28,278 bases of DNA from a virus: IMG/VR virus record IMGVR_UViG_3300002514_000018, positions 366 through 28,643 of that record, one strand, 5' to 3'. Position numbers and translations under genes: made by a program. Positions 14,721-28,134 of this stretch are shown one piece after another (positions within the stretch are counted from its first letter, which is position 1; each line of letters opens with the position of its first letter). The notes below the pieces were generated by a model. That model had not been told where the DNA came from. It was given only the letters and a program-made list of their open reading frames with translations, and did not search any database.

Positions 14721-15266
14721 ATGAAACTTAAGAAATCAAGACTTAGAAAGATTATTAGCGAAGAGCTTGTTCGAGTAATGTTAGAGGGCGAAACAAAGCG
14801 CGTCCTGTCCCTGAAAGAAGGCCACGGCCAAGAACGGGATGAAGAAGGCAGAATGGCCCGAGCACAACTCATCAGAACAATGAAGAACGCAGAGATGCTC
14901 GCCACATCGATACAAGACGAGCAACAGTTGGACGGATGGGTTCAATCTAAGATCACGAAGGCGTCGGATTATTTGCAATCGGTTGCAAACCATCTCGAAG
15001 CAGAAGCGATGCTGGAAGATATGCAAGATCCTTCTGATACTACCTTGAGAAGAGATAGTGACTACGTTGTTACAAACAGTATGGGCTTGGCAGATCCTCA
15101 CGCAAACGATGCAAACCAGGATGATTGGTTCAACAACATTCAAATTGCATCCCGTATCTTGGAAGACTTGCCATTAGAAAATTTGCCTGATCCTGTTACA
15201 CTGGCAGCAAAAATGCTGAGAGACGCAGTAGATCTAATGACTAACCCGTTGGTGGAAGAAGAATAA
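14721..15266 (+). CDS. Protein with basic N-terminal tag (KKSRLRKIISEEL) and WVQ.KITKA motif
   Basis: A 181-residue protein with a good AAGAGGA site 7 bases before ATG 14721. Residues 1-15 (MKLKKSRLRKIISEE) are nearly the same as the start of the protein at 23801, while the rest of the two proteins is unrelated. After an acidic linker comes a helical segment around residues 45-95 (MARAQLIRTMKNAEMLA, then WVQSKITKASDYLQSVANHL), a pattern I recall from other marine phage proteins of unknown function. The C-terminal half is acidic, with a final helix. The tag contains I-S-E followed by E, which fits the (I/L)-x-E cut site of T4-type prohead proteases, so a prohead-internal or scaffold-associated role is a reasonable hypothesis. 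It sits in a 59-base gap after the primase and is not overlapped by any gene. Confidence 0.7.
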   Translation: MKLKKSRLRKIISEELVRVMLEGETKRVLSLKEGHGQERDEEGRMARAQLIRTMKNAEMLATSIQDEQQLDGWVQSKITKASDYLQSVANHLEAEAMLEDMQDPSDTTLRRDSDYVVTNSMGLADPHANDANQDDWFNNIQIASRILEDLPLENLPDPVTLAAKMLRDAVDLMTNPLVEEE

Positions 15267-15274
15267 AAAACTTC

Positions 15275-15302
15275 TTGACTTAGATTTTTAGGCTGCTATT
15301 AT
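15275..15302 (+). promoter_or_regulatory. Strong sigma70-like promoter with extended -10
   Basis: TTGACT (15275-15280; 5 of 6 matches to TTGACA) and TATTAT (15297-15302; 5 of 6 matches to TATAAT) are separated by 16 bases, with a TGC just before the -10 box (TG at 15294-15295), which makes an extended -10. The predicted transcript would begin near 15308-15310, about 25 bases before the TTG start of the Mre11-Rad50 gene, leaving room for GGAGG at 15324-15328. This is the best bacterial-type promoter I see in the window and suggests that recombination genes can be read early by host polymerase. Confidence 0.65.
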
Positions 15303-15333
15303 AAGAGTATCCTGTCACAATGCGGAGGTTCGC

Positions 15334-18300
15334 TTGAAAATAGCGCACATTAGCGACGTTCACATTAGGAACTATCGCTATCACAAAGAGTATCAAGATG
15401 TATTTGAACAACTTTACGAAAAGTTAAAAGAACTTAAGCCTGACATTATTGTCAACACAGGCGACACGGCTCATACCAAGCTAAATCTTAGTCCATCATA
15501 TTTCGATATGACAGCTAAGATGTTTAAAAAGCTGGGAGACATTGCGCCTTATCACGTTATCTTGGGTAACCACGACTTGAATTTGAGAAATCTTTCTCGT
15601 GTCGATGCTATTACTCCGATCGTTGAAGCACTGGGCCACCCTGATATCTTCTTGCATAAAGACACTGCTCAGGTTGATGTAGGAAACGACTGCGTTCTAA
15701 ACGTCCTTTCTATTATCGATCCTGAAAACTGGGAAGCTCCTATTGATAAAGACAAGATTAACATTGCGCTTTATCACGGTTGCGTCTCTGGTGTAACCAC
15801 TGACGCCGGTTTTGTTTTGAGTCACGGCGACATTAGCTTATCCGAACTTATGGGATATGATTACGTCTTGCTTGGAGATATTCACAAGACAAATCAAAAA
15901 GTAGATAAGAAAGGAAAGATGCGATACCCTGGGTCACTCATCCAACAAAACTTTGGTGAAACCGGAGACAAGGGGTTTTTATTATGGGACATCAAGAATA
16001 AAGATGAGTTTACTTGCGACCACTACGTTTTAAATAATCCTAAACCGTTTGTCACAGTAGACCTAACCAGACAAGGCCGTCTGCCAAAGAACCTAGATTT
16101 GCAGCCAGACGCCCGCCTCCGGCTCGTATCTGAGAACACACTGCCTCTTGATGTGATTCGTCGCAGCATTGAAATTGCTAAGACCAAGTTTAAGCCTGAG
16201 TCTGTTACTTATATATGTCGCGCTAATGGCTCTAAAGGAACTTCTAACGAGATCATAGAGGGTTTAGAAAACGATGATCTTCGAGACATTGAAGTCCAAG
16301 AAGAACTCATCGATGAATATCTCAGTGAGTATCAAGTGGACTCAGAAACTCTTCAAAGGGTTTTCCACCTTAACCACAAATATAATGCTATAGCGGAAGA
16401 AGAAGAGGAGGTTAGAAGAAACATTAATTGGTCCCTTCGCTCTTTTAAATGGGACAATCTCTTCAATTATGGAGAGGGCAATTACATTAACTTTGAAAAG
16501 CTCAATGGAGTTGTTGGTGTGTTGGGCAAAAACTTTAGTGGTAAAAGCTCGATTATCGACAGTATGCTTTATACTCTCTTTAATTCAACATCGAAGAATG
16601 AAAGAAAAAATTTAAATCTTATGAACCAAAACAAAGAAGAAGCATCCGCTTCTGTTGAATTGGCGGTCGGCCATTCTGTTTATAGGATTGAACGCGAAAG
16701 CAAAAAATACGAACGTACTTTAAAGGGTAATACAACTCAAGAAGCCAAAACTGACGTGGAGTTTATTCGAAGCGATCAAGACACTGGAGAAGAGATTGTT
16801 CTAACAGGAGACAAAAGGTCAAGTACAGATAAGAGTATTCGTAGTATTTTTGGAACGCTAGACGATTTTCTATTAACCTCTATGGCATCCCAGCTTGGCT
16901 CTTTGAATTACATCAACGAGGGCTCGACCAAAAGGAAGGAGATACTTGCAAAGTTTCTTGACTTGGAGATCTTTGAGAAGAAATTTAAAAAGGCCAAGGA
17001 TGACGCCTCGGATCTAAAGGCTTCACTCAAACGATTTGATGGAAAAGATTTCGAGAAGGAATTGACTGAGTTAAGAACAGAGCTTGCTCGAAATGAAACT
17101 TCTATCGAACACAAAGAGCGAATATGCGACGAAATAGAAAGCGCCATCTCTTCGCTTGTATCGAAGAAGAAGGACATCAAGGACGCCCTGTCATCCATCC
17201 CTGAAGAGATAATCGACATCAACGAAGTCTTGAAGGAGATAAAAACAAGCACAGAGACCCTGGAGAACACATTAGAGAAAAATAAAAAGAATAAAAAGTT
17301 GTTATCTGAGAAGCAGGAAACTAATTCAAAAATTGAACAGTTCATTGGTGAGTTTCCCCTTGACAACATTCAAGACGCTCGCAACAAGATCTCTAACAAC
17401 GAAGAGAAAATAAACGATCTTGACAAAGAGCTTAACATCTTGTTACTTAAACTCAGGCAACAAGAAAAGAAGACAACGCTGTTAGATGAGGTTCCGTGTG
17501 GCGATGAGTATTCTCATTGTAAATTTATCAAAGATGCCCATAAGGCCTCGGAGATTTGTAAAACCACGAAGAAGTCGGTTGAGGACCTTAAGATTTCACG
17601 CAACAAAGTCCAGAGAGAACTGGATCAACTGGATGGGACCAAGGTTGAGCAAAGGTATGAAAAATATTTAAAAATACTAGAAAAAAAGAACACCATTGCC
17701 AACGAGATTAGCAGCACCTTGCTTTCCCTAGAAAAGAATAAAACTTTAATTATTAAAACACAAAATACTATTGATTTCTTAGAAGAAAAGAAAAGCCTCT
17801 ATAACGAAAACAAAGAGGCCATTGAAAACTATGAATCCTTAGAAAAGGAATTTAAAGATATATCAAAACAGATTCTCTTAAAGACCGAGGATCATGAGTG
17901 CTGCAAGAAAGAAAGGCTTGAATTTTACAAGTTAAATGGCTCTCTTGAGCAAAAGCTCCTTCAGTTGAAAACCGAGCAGGATGAGAAAGAATTAATGCAG
18001 AAGCAATTCTCTGCTTATCATTTACTTATGACCTGTATGCACACTAACGGCGTTTCTTATGACATTATCAAAAAGAAACTTCCTGTTATCAATGAAGAGG
18101 TTTCTAAGATCTTAACAAACATTGTTTCCTTCGAGGCAATGTTCGTTACTGATGATAAAAAGCTTGATATTTTAATTAAGCACCCTGGTTATGACCCGCG
18201 CCCAATCGAAATGGGTTCAGGTGCAGAGAAGACTCTTGTCGCAATGGCCATAAGACTGGCGCTTTTAAATGTAACAACGATGCCAAAAGGTGATATATTT

Positions 18301-18489
18301 ATCTTAGATGAGCCGGGAACTGCTCTTGATGAGGAAAATATGGAAGGTTTTGTGAGAATGCTTGAGATGATCAAGTCTCAGTTTAAGACCGTGCTACTCA
18401 TTTCACACTTAGACGCTCTAAAAGATATTGTGGACAAGCAAATTATCATCGAGAAAGAAGATGGATTCGCAAAGGTATGTGAGGGATAA
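15334..18489 (+). CDS. Mre11-Rad50 (SbcD-SbcC) fusion, T4 gp47-gp46 type recombination nuclease
   Basis: One 1051-residue chain joins two proteins that T4 and bacteria encode separately. Start TTG 15334 is set by GGAGG five bases upstream and by the immediate MKIAHISDVH. The Mre11 part (about 1-345) shows D8/H10, GDTAH (D44), GNHD (N79, H80, D81), YHG (H148) and a variant last motif GDIH (D182, H184) where GHxH is usual. The Rad50 part (about 365-1051) has Walker A GKNFSGKS (398-405), a long coiled coil, a hook with C722 and C729, signature MGSGAEKT (960-967), Walker B DIFILDE (987-993) and H-loop H1025. As a fused ATP-driven exo/endonuclease it should process DNA ends for recombination-dependent replication. 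The hook spacing is CX6C rather than CXXC. It has its own promoter upstream, and the stop directly abuts the next gene's ATG. Confidence 0.92.
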   Translation: MKIAHISDVHIRNYRYHKEYQDVFEQLYEKLKELKPDIIVNTGDTAHTKLNLSPSYFDMTAKMFKKLGDIAPYHVILGNHDLNLRNLSRVDAITPIVEALGHPDIFLHKDTAQVDVGNDCVLNVLSIIDPENWEAPIDKDKINIALYHGCVSGVTTDAGFVLSHGDISLSELMGYDYVLLGDIHKTNQKVDKKGKMRYPGSLIQQNFGETGDKGFLLWDIKNKDEFTCDHYVLNNPKPFVTVDLTRQGRLPKNLDLQPDARLRLVSENTLPLDVIRRSIEIAKTKFKPESVTYICRANGSKGTSNEIIEGLENDDLRDIEVQEELIDEYLSEYQVDSETLQRVFHLNHKYNAIAEEEEEVRRNINWSLRSFKWDNLFNYGEGNYINFEKLNGVVGVLGKNFSGKSSIIDSMLYTLFNSTSKNERKNLNLMNQNKEEASASVELAVGHSVYRIERESKKYERTLKGNTTQEAKTDVEFIRSDQDTGEEIVLTGDKRSSTDKSIRSIFGTLDDFLLTSMASQLGSLNYINEGSTKRKEILAKFLDLEIFEKKFKKAKDDASDLKASLKRFDGKDFEKELTELRTELARNETSIEHKERICDEIESAISSLVSKKKDIKDALSSIPEEIIDINEVLKEIKTSTETLENTLEKNKKNKKLLSEKQETNSKIEQFIGEFPLDNIQDARNKISNNEEKINDLDKELNILLLKLRQQEKKTTLLDEVPCGDEYSHCKFIKDAHKASEICKTTKKSVEDLKISRNKVQRELDQLDGTKVEQRYEKYLKILEKKNTIANEISSTLLSLEKNKTLIIKTQNTIDFLEEKKSLYNENKEAIENYESLEKEFKDISKQILLKTEDHECCKKERLEFYKLNGSLEQKLLQLKTEQDEKELMQKQFSAYHLLMTCMHTNGVSYDIIKKKLPVINEEVSKILTNIVSFEAMFVTDDKKLDILIKHPGYDPRPIEMGSGAEKTLVAMAIRLALLNVTTMPKGDIFILDEPGTALDEENMEGFVRMLEMIKSQFKTVLLISHLDALKDIVDKQIIIEKEDGFAKVCEG

Positions 18490-19326
18490 ATGGATACAAT
18501 CGGAATTATTGGACAAGGATTTGTAGGAACAGCGATACGTGAAGGAATGAAGCATCGCTTTCATGTTGAGACTTATGACAAGTTTAAGGAATCGACTTGC
18601 GACAGTATTCAAGAGTTGATGAAGAGAACTAAGATGTTTTTTGTTTGTTTGCCCACCCCAATGCGCCAAGACGGGTCGTGCGACCTTTCGATCATTGAAG
18701 ATACGATACGCGAAGCAGATAATCACTCTGATGGTCATATCGCGATCATTAAATCAACTGTCGTCCCCACCACAACCAGGCGTCTTAACGATGAAACAAA
18801 AAATCTTTCAGTTACGTTTAGTCCTGAGTTCTTGACAGAGGCAAATTATATCGACGATTTCAAAAATCAGAACAGGATAATCATAGGAGGCCCAGAAGAG
18901 CCATCCAACTATGTGGCCAATATGTTCAAGAAAGTGTTCCCAAATGTTTTGATTGTCAAGACTGATCCTACAATTGCAGAGATGGTTAAATATTTTACGA
19001 ATACGTTTCTTGCAACCAAGGTAAGCTTTGCCAATGAGATGAGAAAGGTTTGCGCCAACATCAATATCGATTACGACAAAGTCTTGGGTTACGCTCTGTA
19101 CGACACCCGCATCGGAGGAACGCACCTATCTGTTCCAGGTCCAGATGGAAATCAAGGGTTCGGCGGATCTTGTTTCCCTAAAGATATCAATGCTTTAATA
19201 CACTTTGCGAGAACTCTAGGCTTTGAGCCAACCATTTTATCATCGGTGTGGAAAAAGAATTTAGAAGTGAGGCCTGAAAGGGATTGGGAGAAGCTTAAAG
19301 GCCGAGCAGTCTCTGAAACAGAATAA
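18490..19326 (+). CDS. Short UDP-glucose/GDP-mannose 6-dehydrogenase-like protein
   Basis: A 278-residue protein beginning right after the preceding stop, with GAGGG as ribosome site. The N-terminal Rossmann motif is GIIGQGFVG (G8, G10, G13), followed by FSPEFLTEANYIDDF, a central helix EMVKYFTNTFLATKVSFANE (K167, N171) and the active-site GGSCFPKD (C228, K231, D232). These are the hallmark residues of nucleotide-sugar 6-dehydrogenases, which oxidise UDP-glucose or a related sugar to the uronic acid with NAD. Family members usually have about 390-450 residues; this one stops soon after the catalytic loop and lacks the C-terminal nucleotide-sugar-binding domain. It could be a minimal enzyme, one that uses a partner, or one with a different substrate. 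Possible roles are capsule or LPS remodelling in the infected cell; the substrate is unknown. Confidence 0.85.
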   Translation: MDTIGIIGQGFVGTAIREGMKHRFHVETYDKFKESTCDSIQELMKRTKMFFVCLPTPMRQDGSCDLSIIEDTIREADNHSDGHIAIIKSTVVPTTTRRLNDETKNLSVTFSPEFLTEANYIDDFKNQNRIIIGGPEEPSNYVANMFKKVFPNVLIVKTDPTIAEMVKYFTNTFLATKVSFANEMRKVCANINIDYDKVLGYALYDTRIGGTHLSVPGPDGNQGFGGSCFPKDINALIHFARTLGFEPTILSSVWKKNLEVRPERDWEKLKGRAVSETE

Positions 19327-19334
19327 GGAACTAC

Positions 19335-19340
19335 TTATAA
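19335..19340 (+). promoter_or_regulatory. TTATAA box before the small membrane gene cluster
   Basis: TTATAA followed by T gives a perfect TATAAT (19336-19341) in the 30-base gap ahead of the 19357 gene. I see no convincing -35. The same TTATAA core occurs in the gaps before the genes at 9991, 15334 and 23422, so it may be part of a phage-specific promoter. GGAG at 19344-19347 is the ribosome site of the next gene. Confidence 0.3.
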
Positions 19341-19356
19341 TACGGAGACTTTCACA

Positions 19357-19551
19357 ATGGAAAAAGTTAAATCATTTTTAGATAGAATGACTGAAAAAGC
19401 CATTAGCCGCAAATTTCTTGCTTGGGTTACGGCAACAGTTCTAGCCGCCTACGGGCACATTGATTCTAGCGACTGGGTTGCTGTTACTACTATGTACATC
19501 GGCTCTGAGGCGCTGGTAGACCTTGCTTCACGATGGAGGCACGGATCTTGA
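19357..19551 (+). CDS. Small membrane protein, holin-like
   Basis: A 64-residue protein with GGAG nine bases before its ATG. The N-terminal 18 residues are charged (MEKVKSFLDRMTEKAISR), followed by two short hydrophobic segments, about 20-33 (FLAWVTATVLAAYG) and 40-57 (WVAVTTMYIGSEALVDLA), separated by a HIDSSD turn, and a basic C-terminal tail (RWRHGS). Size and topology fit a two-segment holin or another small phage membrane protein. The two genes that follow encode membrane-anchored coiled-coil proteins, which supports, without proving, a lysis cassette. No endolysin gene is recognisable next to it, which weakens the assignment. Confidence 0.6.
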   Translation: MEKVKSFLDRMTEKAISRKFLAWVTATVLAAYGHIDSSDWVAVTTMYIGSEALVDLASRWRHGS

Positions 19552-19552
19552 T

Positions 19553-19951
19553 ATGGCGCTTAAACTAAAAAAAGCCTGGGTCTGGCTCAAGAAGCACTGG
19601 TATGTGCCTGTAATGGCCATCGTGTTGTTGGTCTTCCTTATTTTATGTCCTTTGTGTGCATCGAAAGACAATAAGCTGCTTCAGATGTTTAAATTAAACA
19701 AAGAGAGTTATGAAAAGGAAATTGATGCTATTAACAAAGCCCAAGAAGAGAAAGATAAAAAACGAACAGAGCTTTATGAAAAGTATGTAGAAACGATGAA
19801 AGATTTGACCATCAAGCACAACGTCGATATGGACTCGCTCGAAGACAAACAGAAGAAAAAATTAGACACTTTAGTTAAAAAGTACAAAGGAACTCCTGAT
19901 GAGTTAGCTCGCGAGCTAGGTGAAATGTTCGGTGTGGACTATGTGGAATAA
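19553..19951 (+). CDS. Membrane-anchored coiled-coil protein, i-spanin-like
   Basis: A 132-residue protein from ATG 19553, one base after the stop of the previous gene; GGAGG lies at 19535-19539 (13-base spacing). A TTG start at 19523 would add ten residues but lies upstream of that ribosome site. A basic N-terminus (KLKKAWVWLKKHW) leads into one transmembrane helix (residues 16-35, ending CPLCA) and then a highly charged, heptad-like coiled coil (about 40-112) with a short acidic C-terminus. N-in/C-out anchoring with a periplasmic coiled coil is the layout of Rz-type inner-membrane spanins. No lipoprotein (Rz1-like) gene is nested inside. The gene overlaps the following one by 11 bases. The spanin role is inferred from architecture and context. 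Confidence 0.6.
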   Translation: MALKLKKAWVWLKKHWYVPVMAIVLLVFLILCPLCASKDNKLLQMFKLNKESYEKEIDAINKAQEEKDKKRTELYEKYVETMKDLTIKHNVDMDSLEDKQKKKLDTLVKKYKGTPDELARELGEMFGVDYVE

Positions 19952-20420
19952 ACTTTTAGCACTCGTGTTAAGCGTTACTTTGATGTGCATACCTTTCTAT
20001 GCGTATGCTGGAGAAGCAGATCCCGACGACAGTCTCAATATCAATGGCAAAGTTACGGCCCTTGGCAAAGGAGAAAAGGCTCCATACCAAGGAATCCTTT
20101 TTGACATCCAAGCTGCAACCAAATTGAAGCTTGACAAGGAGTTTGCTCAAAAAAAGTTCGAACTTGAATTAGACTACGAAAAGAAAAAGATTTCTGCCGA
20201 CCTTACATTAAAACTGAATGCTCTGCAAATTCAGCACGATACCCTTAAAAGCAAGACTGATACACTGTTGACAATAAAAAATGATGAAATAAACAGACTT
20301 CAAGACCTAGTTAAAGATAGTCCGAATGATTACAACAACTGGTTCTTTGCCGGCGGCGTCGTTGCAGGCGTCCTGTTGTCTATCGGAATTTTTTATGCAA
20401 CAGTGGAGATTAGAGATTAG
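19941..20420 (+). CDS. Exported coiled-coil protein with C-terminal membrane anchor
   Basis: A 159-residue protein from ATG 19941; a GTG at 19920 would add seven residues, but ATG 19941 gives a proper signal peptide: MWNK, a hydrophobic core, then a signal peptidase I site after AYA (residues 21-23). The nearby Cys (TLMC16) does not fit a lipobox well. The mature part begins with an acidic linker and a KGEKAPYQGILFD stretch (43-55), continues as a coiled coil (about 60-125) and ends in a transmembrane segment (133-153) with a seven-residue tail. This would place a coiled coil in the periplasm, facing that of the previous gene's product. The signal-plus-C-terminal-anchor layout recalls unimolecular spanins, but the lipid anchor is missing. 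The APxxGxL stretch is a pattern I recall from marine phage proteins of unknown role. Confidence 0.6.
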   Translation: MWNKLLALVLSVTLMCIPFYAYAGEADPDDSLNINGKVTALGKGEKAPYQGILFDIQAATKLKLDKEFAQKKFELELDYEKKKISADLTLKLNALQIQHDTLKSKTDTLLTIKNDEINRLQDLVKDSPNDYNNWFFAGGVVAGVLLSIGIFYATVEIRD

Positions 20421-21226
20421 TGGGTAGATCAAATGCAATTGGTAAATATAGTCGAGCGAAGTTAAACCATCTGATTGAGCAGGCCGCCATAGACGGCGCA
20501 GGCGACATCACTGCCGTCACTGCTGGAAATGGTTTATCTGGCGGCGGCACAACTGGTGCCCTCGCGATAGCTGTTGATATTAACGACGCAACTGATGGAA
20601 CAACAATAGCGGTCGCCAGTGGCGACCTCTTGTTGATTGCCGACGCCAATGACTCCAACAATGTCAAGAAAATACAAGTGTCCCAGCTTCCCGCCGGGTC
20701 ACCTGCCGGTTCTAATACTCAGATCCAGTTTAACAATGATGGCGCTCTGGGAGCCTCTGCTAACTTAGTTTTTGACGGGTCTACTTTATCAGTCACTGGC
20801 TCGGTGGAGTTGACTGGTTCTATGGGCCTTAATGTCAAAGGCGCGAGCGTCACGCACGGCCTTACACTCCCTAATGAGACGACTGACAACAGCGGAATGA
20901 TAAAGGCCACGGCCTACCTTACTTATAGTTCAATTAAGTATAAGAAAAACGTACAGCCGATTGAAAATCCTCTGGAGAAGTTAAAGAACCTTCGAGGCGT
21001 AAGATTTGATTGGAAGGACAGCGGTAAAAAGGATATTGGATTTATTGTTGAAGAAGTTTTCGAGGAATTGCCAGAAGTGGTCGGATATGACAATGGCACT
21101 CCATCATCTATGGACTATGCAAAAATGACTTCGTTCCTACTACAGTGCGTTAAAGAACAACAAGCTGAGTTGAAAGAACAGAGAGAGAAGATCAATTTTT
21201 TAGAAAAACACATATGTAAATCATAG
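20420..21226 (+). CDS. Tail fibre with C-terminal S74 intramolecular chaperone (short)
   Basis: A 268-residue protein starting at GTG 20420, which overlaps the previous stop (TAGTG); GGAG lies at 20405-20408. The N-terminus (MGRSNAIGKYSRAKLNHLIE) may attach to the virion. Residues 30-140 are Gly/Thr/Asn/Asp-rich, trimeric-fibre-like, with a DLLLIADANDSNNVKKIQ segment that is mirrored in the next gene. From about residue 165 comes an S74 chaperone domain: SSIKYKKNVQP (S170, K175), GVRFDWKDSGKKDIGFIVEEV, LPEVV and MDYAKMTSFL, then a terminal coiled coil. S74 domains fold the trimer and cut themselves off just before the conserved Ser. The Asp normally next to that Ser is a Ser here. The likely role is a receptor-binding or side fibre. 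Confidence 0.82.
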   Translation: MGRSNAIGKYSRAKLNHLIEQAAIDGAGDITAVTAGNGLSGGGTTGALAIAVDINDATDGTTIAVASGDLLLIADANDSNNVKKIQVSQLPAGSPAGSNTQIQFNNDGALGASANLVFDGSTLSVTGSVELTGSMGLNVKGASVTHGLTLPNETTDNSGMIKATAYLTYSSIKYKKNVQPIENPLEKLKNLRGVRFDWKDSGKKDIGFIVEEVFEELPEVVGYDNGTPSSMDYAKMTSFLLQCVKEQQAELKEQREKINFLEKHICKS

Positions 21227-21259
21227 TTTACAGATTTGTTACTAAAAAAGATCTAAAAA

Positions 21260-21302
21260 GAGCAGACTGCTCCCTAGTTAAAGCGTCGGGCGAAAGCTCG
21301 AC
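21260..21302 (+). promoter_or_regulatory. Two-hairpin leader of the long fibre gene (possible structured RNA)
   Basis: The 114-base gap before the second fibre gene is the longest in the window and contains two compact stems. Stem 1 is GAGCA/TGCTC (21260-21264 with 21268-21272) around a GAC loop. Stem 2 is GTCGGGC/GCTCGAC (21285-21291 with 21296-21302; one G-T pair) closed by GAAA, a classical GNRA tetraloop. ACTA (21241-21244) can pair with TAGT (21275-21278), enclosing stem 1. No T-tract follows, so these are not ordinary terminators. AGGGGGA just before the ATG (about 21328-21334) is the ribosome site. I match this to no known riboswitch. mRNA stabilisation or translational control is plausible. 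Confidence 0.45.
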
Positions 21303-21340
21303 AGCACAATAAATTTTCAAAATTATAGGGGGAAAATATT

Positions 21341-23326
21341 ATGGCTGCACCTTTTGACGCAAGTAATGCTAGTATTTACGGAGATTACATTCAGCTTAGT
21401 GGTTCTGGAACCGCTGCACCGACTGGATCTAGCCGTGGACTATCATTCTTATTCGCTTCTTCTTCCACAGGAAATGAAGCAGACACCAAAGTTTACCTTG
21501 TAAACGGAACCGGCTCGGCTTCTCCAGTTCTTACTGAGGGAGAGAGCTTTAACTTCTCGGTCGCTGGCGACGCGGGATCTGCACAATCCATCACTGATGG
21601 TAATACATTAACACTCGCAGGTGGCGACGGACTCGCTTCTACTGCTTCCGCAACTGATACTGTTACGTTTAACGTTAACATCACATCCGAGAGCGCTCTT
21701 GCTACGGTTGCTGACGGCGACACGATTCTTATCGATGACGGCGACGGCGGAACGATCAAAAAGATCACTCGTGCTAACTTCATCGAGTCTGCACCTCTTG
21801 ATGCTATTGACATCGATGGTGGTGCGATTGACGGAACTGCAATTGGAGCCAATTCGCGTTCCACTATTCAGTGTACAACTCTTGACGCTAACGGCAACGT
21901 TACTCTTGGAGATGCTGCTACTGACGTAACAACGGTAACTGGACGGCTTACAGCTTCTGTTGGAATTGCGCTCGTTGATGATGCTTACATCGCTGACGAT
22001 AAAAAACTTTACTTCGGTAATGGAGCCGATGCATCTATTGAATACGACGAGAACGGCACTGACGAACTTCGCTTTGCAGGAGCCGCTGTTACTTTTGAAC
22101 AGGCCGTCTCGATGGACGCCAACGTTACTCTTGGTAACGCCAGTTCCGATGTAATTACAACAACTGGTATGCTTACAGCATCTAACGGCATCAACCTCGC
22201 TCTAGACAGTGTTGTTAACGATGACACTAGACTTTTCTTCGGATCCAACCTTGATGCATCCATCGAATACGATGAGAACGGTACTGACGAACTTCGTTTC
22301 GCAGGAGCCGCTGTTACTTTTGAACAGAATGTATCCTTTGACGAAGACGTTGCTCTTGGTCTTACAATGGCCGATGTTGTCACTGTTAACGGACAGCTTA
22401 CAGCTTCTCAGGGACTTTTGTCTTCGCAGATTCTAAAGCTCGCTGACGACACCAAGCTTGTTTTTGGTACTGGAGATGACGCTTCTATTGAGTACGATGA
22501 GGACGGCACCGACGAACTTCGTTTCGCTGGCGCTGCCGTCACCTTCGAGCAGAACGTATCCTTCGACGAAGATGTTACTCTCGGCCTAAGTGACGCTGAT
22601 GTTGCTACTGTTGCTGGACAGCTTACAGCTTCGCACGGTCTTTCGATCGCTGCCGGTAAGCCAATCCACGTCAGCACGGGCGACCTCATCTTGACTGATA
22701 ACCAAGCTGCTGCTCTTGAAATCAAAGAAGGCGGTAACGTCTATATGGTTTTCAACACTGCTGACAGTGGTGGAGAAGTTGTGGGAATTGGTAAACACCT
22801 CGTCCCAACATCCGACGGCGCGGTTGACCTTGGAGCATCGGCTCTTCAGTACAAAGACATTTACATCAATGGCGCTGCTTACATCGACCAACTCGGTGAA
22901 GCTCTTGACGCTAACAGCCAGAACATTACTGGTGTTGGTAACTTAGCTGCTACTACGATTGGCGTCGCTGGCGCTACGGCATCCGGCGATGTTGCTCTTG
23001 CGCTTCCATCCGGCAAAGACGTTAAAGCTCGCTCTTTCGTCACTTACTCGGAAAGAAGCCTCAAGACTAACATTCAACCAATGAATGACGCTATTGACAC
23101 TGTTAAAAAGATGCAAGGTGTTACCTACGATCTTAGAAACAGCGGAAAGAATGAAGTCGGTTTCATCGCTGATGAAATGGCTCAGGTTGTTCCAGAAGTT
23201 GTCTCCTTTAAGGAAGACGGCACGGCTGCTGGTCTTGACTACGGTCGCTTAACTTCGGTTCTTGTTGAAGCTATTAAAGCACAACAGGTTCAAATCGAAA
23301 ACTTGATGAGCAAACTCAACAAGTAA
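21341..23326 (+). CDS. Long tail fibre with internal 75-residue repeats and S74 chaperone
   Basis: A 661-residue protein with a strong AGGGGGA site before ATG 21341. The N-terminal 120 residues are Ser/Gly/Ala/Thr-rich and include a TVADGDTILIDDGDGGTIKK segment resembling one in the preceding fibre. Residues of about 219-443 are three 75-residue repeats carrying DASIEYDE(N/D)GTDELRFAGA and LTAS. A knob-like region follows, and from about residue 565 an S74 domain: SERSLKTNIQP, GVTYDLRNSGKNEVGFIADEM, VPEVV, LDYGRLTSVLVEAI, ending in a short coiled coil. The protein should form a trimer and release its own chaperone. Codon choice differs from neighbours: Arg is mostly CGT/CGC, and Ala, Thr and Val are mostly GCT, ACT and GTT, where neighbours use AGA and mixed codons. 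This suggests strong expression. It has its own leader and terminator. Confidence 0.87.
   Translation: MAAPFDASNASIYGDYIQLSGSGTAAPTGSSRGLSFLFASSSTGNEADTKVYLVNGTGSASPVLTEGESFNFSVAGDAGSAQSITDGNTLTLAGGDGLASTASATDTVTFNVNITSESALATVADGDTILIDDGDGGTIKKITRANFIESAPLDAIDIDGGAIDGTAIGANSRSTIQCTTLDANGNVTLGDAATDVTTVTGRLTASVGIALVDDAYIADDKKLYFGNGADASIEYDENGTDELRFAGAAVTFEQAVSMDANVTLGNASSDVITTTGMLTASNGINLALDSVVNDDTRLFFGSNLDASIEYDENGTDELRFAGAAVTFEQNVSFDEDVALGLTMADVVTVNGQLTASQGLLSSQILKLADDTKLVFGTGDDASIEYDEDGTDELRFAGAAVTFEQNVSFDEDVTLGLSDADVATVAGQLTASHGLSIAAGKPIHVSTGDLILTDNQAAALEIKEGGNVYMVFNTADSGGEVVGIGKHLVPTSDGAVDLGASALQYKDIYINGAAYIDQLGEALDANSQNITGVGNLAATTIGVAGATASGDVALALPSGKDVKARSFVTYSERSLKTNIQPMNDAIDTVKKMQGVTYDLRNSGKNEVGFIADEMAQVVPEVVSFKEDGTAAGLDYGRLTSVLVEAIKAQQVQIENLMSKLNK
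21995..22669 (+). repeat. Three tandem 225-base repeats inside the long fibre gene
   Basis: Copies at 21995-22219, 22220-22444 and 22445-22669 have an identical period of 225 bases (75 codons). Each begins D-D-x-(K/R)-L-x-FG and continues DASIEYDE and LRFAGAAVTFEQ. Copies 2 and 3 share NVSFDEDV, while copy 1 has AVSMDANV. A partial copy of the second half (VTLGDAATDV, LTAS) precedes copy 1. Synonymous differences between copies show that the repeats are not a recent duplication. Confidence 0.9.
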
Positions 23327-23333
23327 ATAAAAT

Positions 23334-23351
23334 AACCTTTTAGGTTTTTTT
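23334..23351 (+). terminator. Small intrinsic terminator, first of a tandem pair
   Basis: AACCT (23334-23338) and AGGTT (23342-23346) form a 5-bp stem with a TTT loop, followed by five further T. It lies 8 bases after the stop of the long fibre gene and just ahead of a much stronger terminator. Weak alone, it probably adds to termination. Confidence 0.5.
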
Positions 23352-23389
23352 GCCGGTCCCCTCTTCGTGGGGGGATCGGCTTTTCTTTT
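23352..23389 (+). terminator. Strong intrinsic terminator of the long fibre gene
   Basis: A 12-bp stem (23352-23363 with 23369-23380; two G-T pairs) is closed by a TTCGT loop that includes the stable TTCG tetraloop sequence, followed by TTTTCTTTT (23381-23389). It is the only strong intrinsic terminator in the window and ends the fibre transcription unit. Confidence 0.93.
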
Positions 23390-23421
23390 ACATTAATAAG
23401 AAGATGTGTTATATTTATAAT

Positions 23422-23811
23422 ATGACCGAGACAAAAGATTGGAACTATATTGTTAAGTTGGAAAAGGCCATAGAACAAAAATATGGTAAAGAAGCTGTAC
23501 ACAATCCTAACTCTAGTTGGGACAGTACCAAAGAGAAAGAATACTTGGAGCAACTTAAGAAATTGGCTGATAAAGATACCATTATCGAGCAACAACAAGA
23601 AATGATTGAAGTTGATGGGTTTTTAGTTCCTAAAAAACTACTTAATAGAGACAAGAGTAAAAACTGTCCGGTTTGTGACAGTTATTTAAAAACAATTAAA
23701 GACGATATCTATATGGCAAAGTATGAGTGTTGCGACCCTTGTTTCATTCAGTATGTCGAAGATAGAGAAGAAAGATGGCTAACTGGCTGGAGGCCCAACA
23801 ATGAAAATTAA
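23422..23811 (+). CDS. Small Cys-rich (putative zinc-binding) protein of unknown function
   Basis: A 129-residue protein if started at ATG 23422; the frame is open further upstream, but that part runs through the terminator and is not coding. ATG 23404 is an alternative; neither has a clear ribosome site, so the start is uncertain. A helical, charged N-terminal half (EKAIEQKYGKEAV, EYLEQLKKLADKDTIIEQQQ) precedes a Cys-rich part: CPVC (C82, C85) and CCDPC (C103, C104, C107), which could bind zinc as a treble-clef or ribbon-like site. It ends in ERWLTGWRPN. A TATAAT sits directly before the ATG. The gene overlaps the next one by 11 bases. I cannot assign a function; a DNA- or protein-binding adaptor is conceivable. 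Confidence 0.65.
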   Translation: MTETKDWNYIVKLEKAIEQKYGKEAVHNPNSSWDSTKEKEYLEQLKKLADKDTIIEQQQEMIEVDGFLVPKKLLNRDKSKNCPVCDSYLKTIKDDIYMAKYECCDPCFIQYVEDREERWLTGWRPNNEN

Positions 23812-24109
23812 AAAATCAAGACTTAAGCAGATCATTAAAGAAGAGCTAGATAATCTATCATTCGATACCGATGAAGAAGAAATGGATCTCAATGAGCCTA
23901 TGTACCGCCTTCGCGATGAGATCCAAGACGCAGCAAGAGATGCAATGAGGACCATCGCCATTAGAGAGTTAAAAGGAAGAGTCAGTCAAGATAAACTAGC
24001 ATCAACAGTCCAAGACATCGAGCATGAGTTTGAACAAGTCTTGATGGATGCTTTAACACCAGCGGCAGGAGGTCTTATGGCCATCATTGCTACCGCAAAA
24101 GGAAATTAA
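23801..24109 (+). CDS. Small protein with basic N-terminal tag (KKSRLKQIIKEEL)
   Basis: A 102-residue protein; GGAGG lies at about 23789-23793, eight bases before ATG 23801. Residues 1-15 (MKIKKSRLKQIIKEE) repeat the start of the 14721 protein at 12 of 15 positions. The tag has I-K-E followed by E, matching the (I/L)-x-E cut rule of T4 prohead protease. After an acidic segment (FDTDEEEMDLNE) the rest is amphipathic helix (LRDEIQDAARDAMRTIAIRELKGRV, DIEHEFEQVLMDAL) ending in a small hydrophobic stretch (GGLMAIIATAKGN). It precedes the terminase region, where head genes cluster. I infer an internal head or scaffold-associated protein; no homologous family is known to me by name. Confidence 0.7.
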   Translation: MKIKKSRLKQIIKEELDNLSFDTDEEEMDLNEPMYRLRDEIQDAARDAMRTIAIRELKGRVSQDKLASTVQDIEHEFEQVLMDALTPAAGGLMAIIATAKGN

Positions 24110-24607: not shown

Positions 24608-26182
24608 ATGGCTTATAGCTTAACAAGAGAAGAAATTCTAAAAGAACTTGTTAAATGTGGCAAAAATCCGGCATATTTTATCAACAACTATGCTAAGATT
24701 TCACACCCACTGAAGGGCCTAATACCGTTCAAAATGTATCCCTTTCAGGAGCAGCTTGTACACGATTTTAGTGACCATCGTTTTAACATTATTTTAAAAG
24801 CTCGGCAGCTTGGCATATCAACCGTCTCAGCAGCTTATATCGCTTGGATGATGATGTTTCACCGAGATAAGAATGTTTTGGTTATTGCTACAAAGTTTGG
24901 TACAGCCGCCAACCTTGTTAAAAAGGTAAAAGCGATCCATCGTAACCTTCCCGAATGGATGCGTATCGCCAAGATATCCATTGACAACAGAACATCCTTT
25001 GAGTTGTCTAATGGTTCGCAAATCAAAGCGTCTTCAACATCTTCAGACGCCGGTCGTTCTGAAGCGCTATCCCTCCTCGTTATTGATGAGGCCGCCCACG
25101 TTGAGGGTCTCGATGAGTTATGGACTGGCCTTTACCCTACATTGTCAACTGGAGGCCGCTGTATCGCCCTTTCAACCCCAAACGGGTGTGGTAATTGGTT
25201 TCATCAAACGTATATTGATTCTGAAGAGAATCGTAACGATTTTTATCAAACACGGCTACCGTGGGATGTACATCCCGACAGAGATATGGTTTGGTTTGAT
25301 AAAGAGACAAAGAATATGTCTCGAACTCAAATAGCCCAAGAGCTTGAGTGCAACTTCAATATGTCAGGTGAAACAGTATTTCATCCTGAAGATATGGAAA
25401 AACTAAGAGTTTTTGTCAAGGAGCCCAAGTATCGCACTGGATTCGATCGTAACTTTTGGATCTGGGAAGAATATCAAGAAGGCTTCACCTATATGGTCTC
25501 GGCTGATGTCGCCCGTGGCGACGGCAAAGATTATTCCACATTTCATATTTTTAAAATTGAGACAATGGAGGTCGTAGGAGAATACCAGGGCAAGCTAACC
25601 CCAGATATGTTTGCAAGAATGCTGCTGGATGTTGGCCGCCAATATGGTGAATGTATGGTGGTAGTAGAAAATAACACAATCGGATGGACAGTACTGGATA
25701 AAATACAAGAATCAGGATACCCTAATTTATTTTATTCCTACAAGTCTTCTCACGATTATGTAGATCCTCTAACTGCTGAAACAAAAAACAACACTGTTAT
25801 GGGTTTTTCGATGACATCCAAGACAAGACCATTAGTTGTTGCAAAATTAGAAGAATTCGTTAGAAATAAACTAGTTACAGTGTATTCTAAGCGATTACTT
25901 AATGAAATGGAGACTTTTATTTGGCACAATGGCAAGCCCCAAGCTATGAAAAAGTACAATGATGATTTAATCATGGCTTTTGCAATTGGGTGTTGGGTCA
26001 AAGACACAGTATATACAACAAACCAAAGAGACGCAGAATATAGAAAAGCGTTTCTTTCTACAATGGCAAAATCATCATCAGAACTGAACACTTCTATCTC
26101 AGGTATGGTAGGATACAAGGTAAATAAGAAGACGCAGCAAATCGAACAAAACAAAGAATTCATCTGGCTTCTCAAGGGTTAA
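24608..26182 (+). CDS. terL: Terminase large subunit (T4 gp17 type)
   Basis: A 524-residue packaging motor with N-terminal ATPase and C-terminal RNase H-like nuclease. The ATPase has a variant Walker A KARQLGIST (64-72), where the usual P-loop Lys at the GK position is Ile and K64 may serve instead, as in other terminases with a displaced lysine. Walker B is LLVIDEA (D160, E161), and the coupling motif is ALSTPNG (188-193). The nuclease acidic residues are D300 (VSADVARGDGKDYS), E354 (VVVENN) and D452/D453 (NDDLIMAFAI), in the same order as in gp17. T4 gp17 has 610 residues, so this one lacks some terminal sequence. No clear ribosome site precedes the ATG, so coupling to the gene three bases upstream is likely. 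The portal gene follows after 5 bases. Confidence 0.95.
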   Translation: MAYSLTREEILKELVKCGKNPAYFINNYAKISHPLKGLIPFKMYPFQEQLVHDFSDHRFNIILKARQLGISTVSAAYIAWMMMFHRDKNVLVIATKFGTAANLVKKVKAIHRNLPEWMRIAKISIDNRTSFELSNGSQIKASSTSSDAGRSEALSLLVIDEAAHVEGLDELWTGLYPTLSTGGRCIALSTPNGCGNWFHQTYIDSEENRNDFYQTRLPWDVHPDRDMVWFDKETKNMSRTQIAQELECNFNMSGETVFHPEDMEKLRVFVKEPKYRTGFDRNFWIWEEYQEGFTYMVSADVARGDGKDYSTFHIFKIETMEVVGEYQGKLTPDMFARMLLDVGRQYGECMVVVENNTIGWTVLDKIQESGYPNLFYSYKSSHDYVDPLTAETKNNTVMGFSMTSKTRPLVVAKLEEFVRNKLVTVYSKRLLNEMETFIWHNGKPQAMKKYNDDLIMAFAIGCWVKDTVYTTNQRDAEYRKAFLSTMAKSSSELNTSISGMVGYKVNKKTQQIEQNKEFIWLLKG

Positions 26183-26187
26183 CATAA

Positions 26188-28134
26188 ATGGCAAAAAATC
26201 AGAACTACAATCCGCGCAATCCCAAAAACTCTCTTTATCGCAAGCTTACGCGCCTTTTATCTGGGCCACTAGCTGATTACAAGCAGCAACAGCCCAGACA
26301 GCTAAAGAGACGACAACTTAACAAATACAATTTCCAATCGTCCAGCGGCCAATCTTTTAAGCGTGGGCAATATAATCCTTATGAGTTTTTAACTCCTAAC
26401 TTTATGTCGAATCAAAATCGTGCCGAGAGGTATGCCGATTTTGATCAAATGGAATACACACCAGAGATTGCTTCAGCGCTAGACATCTACGCTGATGAAA
26501 TGACTACATCGACACCAATCAACCCTTTATTGGGGATCAAATGTCGAAATGAAGAAATAAAATTAGTTCTTGAGCACTTGTACCATGAAGTTTTAAACAT
26601 TGATTTTAACTTGTTTGGATGGTGCCGAACAATGTGTAAGTATGGTGATTTCTTCCTGTACTTGGACATCGATGACAAAGAAGGCGTGCAATACGCCGTT
26701 GGCTTACCTTCTAGCGAAGTTGAAAGATTAGAGGGCCAAGATAAAACAAACCCTAACTACGTCACTTACCAATGGAACTCAGGCGGAATCACCTTTGAGA
26801 ATTGGCAATTGGCTCACTTTCGTATTCTAGGCAACGACAAATACGCCCCCTATGGGACCTCGATCCTCGATGCTGCCCGTAGGATCTGGCGTCAGTTGAC
26901 GTTGCTAGAAGATGCGATGATGTCTTATCGTATCGTCCGATCACCCGAACGACGAGTTTTTTATGTTGATGTCGGAAACATCCCGCCAGAAGACGTTGAG
27001 CAATATATGCAAAAGGTTATGACTCAGATGAAGCGTAACCAAGTTGTGGATGCTGACAATGGCCGCGTGGACCTGCGCTACAATCCAATGAGCGTTGAGG
27101 AAGATTATTTCATCCCCCAGCGAGGAAATCAATCCACTCGTGTTGAATCTCTTCCTGGCGGAACGTATACGGGTGACATCGACGATGTTAAGTACCTAAG
27201 AGATAAACTCTTCTCAGCCCTTAAAATCCCGGCTTCTTATCTGGCTCAGACTGAGGGGGGCAACGAAGACAAGACTACATTAGCTCAAAAAGATATTCGG
27301 TTTGCAAGGACGATACATAGATTACAAAGGTCTGTCGTTGCAGAGTTGGAGAAAATTGGAATTGTTCATCTGTTTACTATGGGATATCGAGGAAAAGACC
27401 TCGTATCGTTTGATCTATCTCTTAACAATCCATCCAAACTTGCTGAATTACAAGAGCTAGAATCTTGGAGGACCAAATTTGAAGTAGCCTCCAGCGCTAC
27501 TGAAGGGTACTTCAGCAAGCGATGGGTTTTCAAAAACCTCTTTAACCTTCCTGAAGAAGAGATCGTGCGTATGCAAAGAGAATTATATTTCGATAAAAAG
27601 TTTGCTGCGGCCCTTGAGGGAGTTGCTGAAGAAATGGCGACCGACGAAGCTCCTGGCGGCGGCGGCCTAGACGCCGAATTTGGCGAAGAAGGCGACGATG
27701 CTGAGATGGAAGACATCTTAGACGAACCAGAAGGAGGCGCTCCCGAAGGCGAAGAAGATGTTCTTCTAGCTGAACCTGGAAAGCGAGATGTGGATAAAAA
27801 GACAGGCAAGACTACAGAAACTGATTGGATGGGCCGCCCAAAAACCACCACTCCTAAGTCTAAGGGAAAATGGTATATCCCAACAGAATGGGATGGAAGA
27901 CGGGACCAGAAAAAGAAAAGTTACAAGTCCCTCTACGCCGACGAGACAGGCAGAGCCACTGACAGAAATGTCGTCGGCGCTGGCCACCAGGCGTTATTAC
28001 GGCTAGGCAAAGGTGTGTTTACCGAAAATCAATCTAATTATAATACTGAAGAGAACAATTTGATGCGTCTTAACCATGAGTTGAAGATGCTGATCGAAAA
28101 AATGGAGTCGAAAAAAGATGAAGTTCAAACATAA
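26188..28134 (+). CDS. Portal protein (T4 gp20 type) with long acidic C-terminal extension
   Basis: A 648-residue protein, with AAGGG about nine bases before ATG 26188. The pattern RAERYADFDQMEYTPEIASA, ALDIYADEMTT, then MCKYGDFFLYL, SPERRVFYVDVGN, RVESLPGG and ALKIPASYLAQ is that of gp20-type portals: the clip/stem core around which the dodecamer forms at the unique head vertex and through which DNA is pumped by the terminase encoded upstream. T4 gp20 has 524 residues; here about 170 residues follow the core, beginning with a Gly/Glu/Asp-rich region (about 474-534) and then a Lys-rich part and a final coiled coil. The extension may contact scaffold, or may be trimmed during maturation. The gene overlaps the next by 17 bases. 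Confidence 0.93.
   Translation: MAKNQNYNPRNPKNSLYRKLTRLLSGPLADYKQQQPRQLKRRQLNKYNFQSSSGQSFKRGQYNPYEFLTPNFMSNQNRAERYADFDQMEYTPEIASALDIYADEMTTSTPINPLLGIKCRNEEIKLVLEHLYHEVLNIDFNLFGWCRTMCKYGDFFLYLDIDDKEGVQYAVGLPSSEVERLEGQDKTNPNYVTYQWNSGGITFENWQLAHFRILGNDKYAPYGTSILDAARRIWRQLTLLEDAMMSYRIVRSPERRVFYVDVGNIPPEDVEQYMQKVMTQMKRNQVVDADNGRVDLRYNPMSVEEDYFIPQRGNQSTRVESLPGGTYTGDIDDVKYLRDKLFSALKIPASYLAQTEGGNEDKTTLAQKDIRFARTIHRLQRSVVAELEKIGIVHLFTMGYRGKDLVSFDLSLNNPSKLAELQELESWRTKFEVASSATEGYFSKRWVFKNLFNLPEEEIVRMQRELYFDKKFAAALEGVAEEMATDEAPGGGGLDAEFGEEGDDAEMEDILDEPEGGAPEGEEDVLLAEPGKRDVDKKTGKTTETDWMGRPKTTTPKSKGKWYIPTEWDGRRDQKKKSYKSLYADETGRATDRNVVGAGHQALLRLGKGVFTENQSNYNTEENNLMRLNHELKMLIEKMESKKDEVQT

What the first reader, a model, noticed from the sequence alone, without database searches (positions are those of the whole stretch)
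14721..24109. Two unrelated small phage proteins share one 15-residue N-terminal tag that fits a prohead-protease targeting signal
The proteins at 14721 and 23801 begin MKLKKSRLRKIISEE and MKIKKSRLKQIIKEE (12 of 15 identical) and then diverge completely. In T4, internal head proteins start with a short basic/amphipathic capsid targeting sequence (MKTYQEFIAE) that is cut by gp21 protease after (I/L)-x-E. Both tags here end in I-I-(S/K)-E followed by E, the same rule. A shared, transferable tag on different cargo would be a modular way to load proteins into the phage head. The match is seen; the function is inference.
Basis: partly seen in the sequence, partly recalled or inferred. Interest (0 to 1): 0.72.

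Follow-up and report, generated by a model that had tools for sequence, protein, structure and literature searches.

The report
Phage-head loading tag on unrelated proteins
Many water-dwelling phages put one short, removable address label on the front of quite unrelated small proteins, and the sequence evidence says the label sends them into the forming virus head and is then cut off, so that these proteins are probably injected into the host with the DNA.

Summary
The shared N-terminal tag is real: 11 of 15 residues identical (not 12), at the stated coordinates. It belongs to a very widespread phage signal, MK[IL]TKxxLKQIIKEE[LI], found on at least 497 proteins in IMG/VR contigs that fall into 372 unrelated cargo clusters, with 1-12 copies per genome.

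An independent test supports the proposed function. The gp21 motif [L/I]-x-E is enriched at residues 17-24 of tagged proteins. It is depleted in the cargo behind the tag (0.80 of shuffled) but not in untagged proteins of the same contigs (1.30; permutation p 5e-5), while scaffold-like proteins are enriched (1.48). Unbiased scans pick out I/L, spacing one, and E as the avoided combination; D, N and Q are not avoided.

Three further tag families follow the same rule. One copies the scaffold protein's C-terminus (RMQKLAGI), which suggests that tags work by mimicking scaffold or core proteins.

Verdict: a capsid-targeting and processing signal of the T4 kind in a new, modular and far more widely used form. 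No proteomic proof.

The parts
14721..14768 (+). N-terminal tag MKLKKSRLRKIISEEL (residues 1-16) with I12-S-E14 motif
14769..14822 (+). linker after the tag (residues 17-34) with further candidate cleavage motif L31-K-E33/G34, the same P3-P1 as in the phage's own major capsid protein (LLKE/A)
   Evidence: sequence; capsid protein alignment
14721..15266 (+). tagged cargo protein 1, 181 aa, no recognised domain
   Evidence: no relative outside the tag in viral contigs at the sensitivity used
23801..23848 (+). N-terminal tag MKIKKSRLKQIIKEEL (residues 1-16) with I12-K-E14 motif; predicted helix residues 5-17
23849..23893 (+). variable, low-confidence linker (residues 17-31) between tag helix and helical domain
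   Evidence: length varies among relatives; residues 22-28 pLDDT below 50
23801..24109 (+). tagged cargo protein 2, 102 aa: tag helix, loose linker, helical domain 32-101; orthologues keep the tag and lie in phage contigs, the two closest beside a T4-type portal
24608..26182 (+). T4-type terminase large subunit, context of the tag cluster
26188..28134 (+). T4-type portal protein gp20 (PF07230, 5e-81). The S77 protease lies beyond the window at record position C1:30241-30891, gp23 capsid protein at C1:33046-34764

Best explanation
The tag is a capsid-targeting and processing signal of the T4 kind. A basic amphipathic helix of about 16 residues binds the protein core of the assembling head, probably by imitating a segment of a core or scaffold protein, so any protein that carries it is built into the prohead. 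The S77 (gp21-type) protease then cuts after [I/L]-x-E, at residue 14 and/or at a second site around residues 20-22, and frees the cargo inside the head, from where it would enter the host with the DNA. Shown: the tag, its modularity, the protease gene, the motif conservation, and selection against the motif in cargo. Inferred: docking partner, actual cleavage, packaging and injection.
For: (1) Modularity: 497 tagged proteins form 372 cargo clusters, 308 of them singletons; in the first set only 4 of 166 within-locus cases repeat a cargo. (2) Protease: S77 and gp23 in the own record; S77 in 44 of 51 tag contigs of at least 93 kb, and in 21 of 21 portal-bearing tag contigs that still have at least 2.8 kb beyond the portal; no HK97-type portal in 16 S77-negative contigs. 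(3) With residues 9-22 left free, I12 (93%) and E14 (94%) are the most conserved and residue 13 is variable (K58 R14 Q6 L4 N3 ...). (4) [LI]xE is 2.5-fold enriched at residues 17-24. (5) Avoidance in cargo: 0.88 (discovery), 0.78 (independent replication) against 1.20 in untagged ORFs; 0.80 against 1.30 for untagged ORFs without tag-like N-termini, permutation p 5e-5; scaffold-like proteins 1.48. The P3 scan picks I and L first, the gap scan only gap 1; at P1, E is avoided (0.77) while D, N, Q are over-represented. The known gp21 motif is L/I-X-E and an Asp at position 10 of the IPIII CTS blocks processing (PMC9026906). (6) The own capsid protein keeps the T4 gp23 E65/A66 site as LLKE/A, the tag has I-K-E. 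(7) Tag helix, loose linker, domain. (8) All 93 tags mapped in 17 records are on the portal strand and 45 lie within 16 kb upstream of the portal (10.9 expected if uniform).
Against: No virion proteomics of a tagged phage was found in the material at hand. S77 co-occurrence alone could be shared ancestry, since all these phages are T4-like. P1' at the first site is E, whereas the capsid-protein sites aligned have A. The tag is longer and more basic than the T4 CTS. Amphipathic helices alone favour regular I/L/E spacing (controlled by mirror motif and shuffles, not perfectly); hydrophobic residues at P1 are also lower in cargo. The profile match of the tag to the core-like protein is weak (hhalign probability 73%).
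Confidence: 0.83

Rival explanations
1. The tag is an uncleaved docking helix that ties small proteins to some other phage structure (portal, terminase, tail or a host target), unrelated to the prohead protease.
For: Predicted amphipathic helix; many tagged genes sit just upstream of terminase and portal.
Against: Does not explain the invariant I-x-E with free middle residue, the second [LI]xE peak at 17-24, or avoidance of exactly [LI]xE in the cargo.
Confidence: 0.09
2. The shared 5' ends are a DNA-level effect: a recombination hotspot or recently copied gene starts, with no function for the peptide.
For: Within a contig, synonymous codons of tags differ somewhat less (K 0.29, E 0.24) than cargo codon use predicts (about 0.41), so tags share some recent descent.
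Against: 34% of same-residue codons differ between tags of one locus and 118 of 291 shared Thr codons differ in the third base, so the peptide is conserved, not the DNA; unrelated peptide tags with the same I/L-x-E rule occur in the same kind of phage.
Confidence: 0.03
3. Targeting signal for the head that is not processed: cargo is packaged by the helix, and avoidance of [LI]xE reflects only exposure to the protease inside the prohead.
For: In T4 an Asp at position 10 of the CTS blocks cutting but not targeting (PMC9026906); the cut in this tag is unproven.
Against: I12-x-E14 and the 20-22 motif are conserved inside the tag, while the same motif is selected against behind it.
Confidence: 0.05

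Closest known systems
T4 capsid targeting sequence (CTS) of internal proteins IPI-III and Alt, cut by gp21
   Same: Short N-terminal peptide on different cargo, I/L-x-E at its end, S77 protease in the genome, T4-type head; T4 work showed that a CTS alone carries foreign proteins into heads (PMC9026906)
   Different: Different and longer sequence (MKITKxxLKQIIKEEL against the 10-residue T4 CTS), usually a second cut motif, 1-12 copies per genome on unrelated proteins, uncultured aquatic phages; processing not yet shown
phiKZ / SPN3US propeptides of inner-body and ejection proteins cut by S80 proteases
   Same: Protease cuts after Glu, redundant sites in propeptides; SPN3US gp53/gp54 share 15 N-terminal residues (PMC5694885)
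   Different: There the protease motif is A-x-E or S-x-E and gp53/gp54 are paralogues; here the motif is I/L-x-E and cargo is unrelated
Encapsulin cargo-loading peptides (own knowledge)
   Same: Short transferable peptide loads unrelated proteins into an HK97-fold shell
   Different: C-terminal, binds the shell directly, not cleaved, not phage

Membership tests
T4-type CTS / gp21 processing system | Genome encodes a gp21-type (S77) prohead protease near a T4-type portal and gp23 | tested here: met
   across tag contigs
T4-type CTS / gp21 processing system | N-terminal peptide ends in the gp21 motif L/I-x-E | tested here: met
   I12 93%, E14 94%, position 13 free; own capsid protein keeps the T4 gp23 cut site
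T4-type CTS / gp21 processing system | Same peptide on cargo of unrelated sequence | tested here: met
   497 proteins, 372 clusters
T4-type CTS / gp21 processing system | Mature cargo resists the protease (motif avoided) | tested here: met
T4-type CTS / gp21 processing system | Tagged proteins are in the head and cut after the motif | not testable with these tools
   needs virion proteomics
T4-type CTS / gp21 processing system | Peptide alone targets a foreign protein to the head | not testable with these tools
   needs a fusion experiment
T4-type CTS / gp21 processing system | Sequence homology to the T4 CTS peptide itself | not tested
   10 residues are too short for a test; only the I/L-x-E end is visibly shared
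phiKZ-type S80 propeptide system | A-x-E or S-x-E motif | tested here: not met
   [AGST]xE is not avoided in cargo (1.08, 1.09); protease matches S77

The most novel reading that the evidence does not exclude
Environmental T4-type phages run a general cargo-loading code: several unrelated short tags (LKQIIKEE, MKLLIENWRxFLxE, FDLKKFLVENKLT, RMQKLAGI-xx-E), at least one of them a copy of the scaffold protein's own C-terminus, let proteins pose as scaffold, enter the prohead and be freed by the S77 protease. Any protein, including DnaJ, nucleotide-kinase-like and pentapeptide-repeat proteins, becomes an injected factor by gaining a tag, so the delivered repertoire of uncultured phages can be read from sequence.
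Probability: 0.6. Interest if true: 0.85.

Novelty: new variant of a known kind. Interest (0 to 1): 0.74.

Why it matters
Which proteins a phage injects beside its DNA is usually unknown and is learned one phage at a time by proteomics. If these tags are head-loading signals, hundreds of anonymous small proteins of uncultured aquatic phages become candidate injected factors at once, identifiable by sequence. The scaffold-mimic tag gives a concrete, testable docking mechanism for a targeting step that is only partly understood even in T4, and the tags would be ready-made handles for loading proteins into phage heads.

Tried and rejected
Pfam and PHROGs gave no domain for either window protein; a weak T5 p143 tail-completion match for the 102-aa protein (E 0.022) is below cut-off and not used. 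No relative of the 181-aa protein was found in viral contigs. tblastn of the 22-residue tag against cultured phages gave nothing even at E 10, probably too short to be significant in that collection. No paper of the library with the tag letters IIKEE or LAGII with scaffold and phage concerns these phages. Structural search of the 102-aa model gave no match below E 0.001. The strict tag in 84,980 bacterial and archaeal species genomes gave one contig, which holds a row of tagged genes and looks phage-like, so a cellular origin was rejected. Codon test: identity of codons between tags is higher than cargo codon use predicts, so some recent shared descent of tags is likely and was kept as part of a rival.

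Full report
OBSERVATION. Both ORFs are present at the stated coordinates. Their first 15 residues agree at 11 positions, not 12; both continue with L16. In the whole 75,057-base record the tag is found at these two places; three weaker variants by eye lie at C1:30888, C1:61313 and C1:71322.

CONTEXT. The window is C1:366-28643 of a virus record. It carries a T4-type terminase and portal; beyond it lie a Peptidase_S77 (gp21 type, C1:30241-30891, 1.8e-31), a scaffold candidate (C1:32034-33029) and a gp23 capsid protein (C1:33046-34764, 2.1e-69).

SPREAD AND MODULARITY. A search with the 102-aa protein brought contigs in which several neighbouring, otherwise unrelated small proteins start MK[IL]TKxxLKQIIKEE[LI]. 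From these loci 497 tagged proteins form 372 cargo clusters at blastp 1e-4; in the first set only 4 of 166 within-locus cases repeat a cargo. Most cargo has no known family; recognised ones among 104 examined include DnaJ, AAA_33/polynucleotide-kinase-like, pentapeptide repeats, leucine-rich repeats and DUF5661. Large S77-positive contigs hold 1-12 copies; all 93 mapped copies are on the portal strand and 45 lie within 16 kb upstream of the portal, where 10.9 are expected if uniform. Only one of 84,980 cellular species genomes has the strict tag, on a phage-like contig. Codons within tags of one locus differ at 34% of same-residue sites, so it is the peptide that is conserved.

PROTEASE. S77 is found in 44 of 51 tag contigs of at least 93 kb (the last set includes two other tag families). 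The seven without it either break off just behind the portal or show no T4 portal. Of portal-bearing tag contigs, all 21 with at least 2.8 kb beyond the portal have S77, and all without it have 2.4 kb or less. None of 16 checked S77-negative contigs has an HK97-type portal. This shows that the necessary enzyme is there; by itself it could be shared ancestry.

MOTIF. The literature motif of T4 gp21 is L/I-X-E, cut after Glu (PMC9026906); targeting by the T4 CTS depends mainly on residues 4 and 7, processing on 8 and 10, and Asp at 10 blocks processing. When tags are picked by their first eight residues only and those hit by the scan patterns are dropped, I12 (93%) and E14 (94%) are the most conserved following positions and residue 13 is variable. 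A second [LI]xE peaks at residues 17-24, 2.5 times the shuffled value, with N, K or S in the middle. The own capsid protein keeps the T4 gp23 site (E65/A66) as LLKE/A, immuto as IVSE/A, Mel-JY01 as LISE/A.

AVOIDANCE TEST. If cargo sits in the prohead with the protease, its body should avoid the motif. In cargo from residue 33 on, [LI]xE occurs at 0.88 (0.76-0.995) of shuffled in a discovery set and 0.78 (0.64-0.92) in a replication set sharing no cargo cluster, against 1.20 (1.16-1.23) in untagged ORFs of the same loci; the mirror motif, [LI]xD, [VM]xE, [AGST]xE and [FYW]xE are not depleted. Open scans over all residues at P3, all gaps and all residues at P1 single out I and L, gap 1, and, among polar residues, E; D, N and Q are over-represented instead. 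Against untagged ORFs without tag-like N-termini the contrast is 0.80 to 1.30, permutation p 5e-5, the limit of 20,000 permutations; scaffold-like proteins, whose T4 counterpart gp22 is cut to pieces, are enriched at 1.48 with a normal mirror motif. Caveats: secondary structure is controlled only by shuffles and mirror motifs; hydrophobic P1 residues are also somewhat low.

ANATOMY. Relatives of the 102-aa protein keep the tag, then a linker of variable length, then a conserved domain; the model has a helix 5-17, a low-confidence linker and a helical domain from 32 (mean pLDDT 76.7). In two contigs a 330-aa protein next to the protease bears the tag at both ends, like T4 Alt, both of whose termini are processed (PMC9026906).

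OTHER TAGS. The same rule appears in three further N-terminal tags on unrelated cargo: MKLLIENWRxFLxE (226 proteins, 118 clusters), FDLKKFLVENKLT (81, 39), and RMQKLAGI followed by I/L/N-x-E (31, 27). Cargo avoidance holds for the ENW family (0.97 against 1.20) and the RMQKLAGI family (0.67 against 1.34; there [LI]xxE is low too, small sample), and points the same way for the KFLVENKLT family (0.96, interval 0.77-1.16). RMQKLAGI is found 86 times at protein C-termini, mostly of scaffold-like proteins (...RMQKLAGIIK-end), with similar ends in the immuto and Mel-JY01 scaffolds. A cargo tag that copies the end of the scaffold protein is direct evidence for loading by mimicry, in that family. For the tag of this finding the candidate model is the small conserved protein encoded just behind the protease (MKKSELKEILKPLIKECIREAIFEEG; hhalign probability 73%, weak).

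WHAT IS SHOWN AND WHAT IS INFERRED. Shown: tag, modularity, protease gene, motif conservation, motif avoidance in cargo. Inferred: docking to the core, cutting, residence in the head, injection.

NOVELTY. The principle is the T4 CTS, and it has been suggested that the CTS lets T4-like phages package varied proteins (PMC9026906). New here are the tag sequence, its spread, several tags with one rule, a selection footprint on cargo, and scaffold mimicry. I found no description in the held papers, which omit most subscription journals.

Noticed in passing
L316:986-5239 (minus strand); IMG/VR loci L324-L398: A second tag, M[KR]xL[IL]ENWRxxLxE, on unrelated neighbouring proteins (226 proteins, 118 cargo clusters), with cargo avoiding I/L-x-E.
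   Followed up: yes
Flavobacterium phage immuto NC_055915: 1803, 103806, 117631, 118632; loci L436-L515: A third tag, FDLKKFLVENKLTxNSKxLxE, on unrelated proteins of cultured and uncultured phages, all seven large contigs checked S77-positive.
   Followed up: partly
immuto 111675; loci L518-L635: A fourth tag, LSEEFRRMQKLAGIITE, whose core RMQKLAGI is also found at the C-terminal end of scaffold-like proteins (86 C-terminal against 31 N-terminal occurrences).
   Followed up: yes
L319:1860-2852 and L320:3554-4546 (minus strand): A 330-aa protein beside the S77 protease with the tag at both its N- and C-terminus.
   Followed up: partly
record C1:31288-31485 (just outside the window); Mel-JY01 22183-22410: A small basic protein in the head operon, annotated as ribosomal protein S21 in Mel-JY01; similar small basic genes stand in the same place in the relatives read (L319-L323).
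   Followed up: no
window 15334-18489: One 1051-aa ORF joins a metallophosphoesterase and an SbcC-like ATPase, that is gp47 and gp46 fused in one protein.
   Followed up: no
window 20420-21226 and 21341-23326: Two fibre-like proteins with similar C-terminal ends that look like intramolecular chaperone domains (by eye, not searched).
   Followed up: no
window 18490-19326: UDP-glucose/GDP-mannose dehydrogenase-like gene in a phage genome.
   Followed up: no
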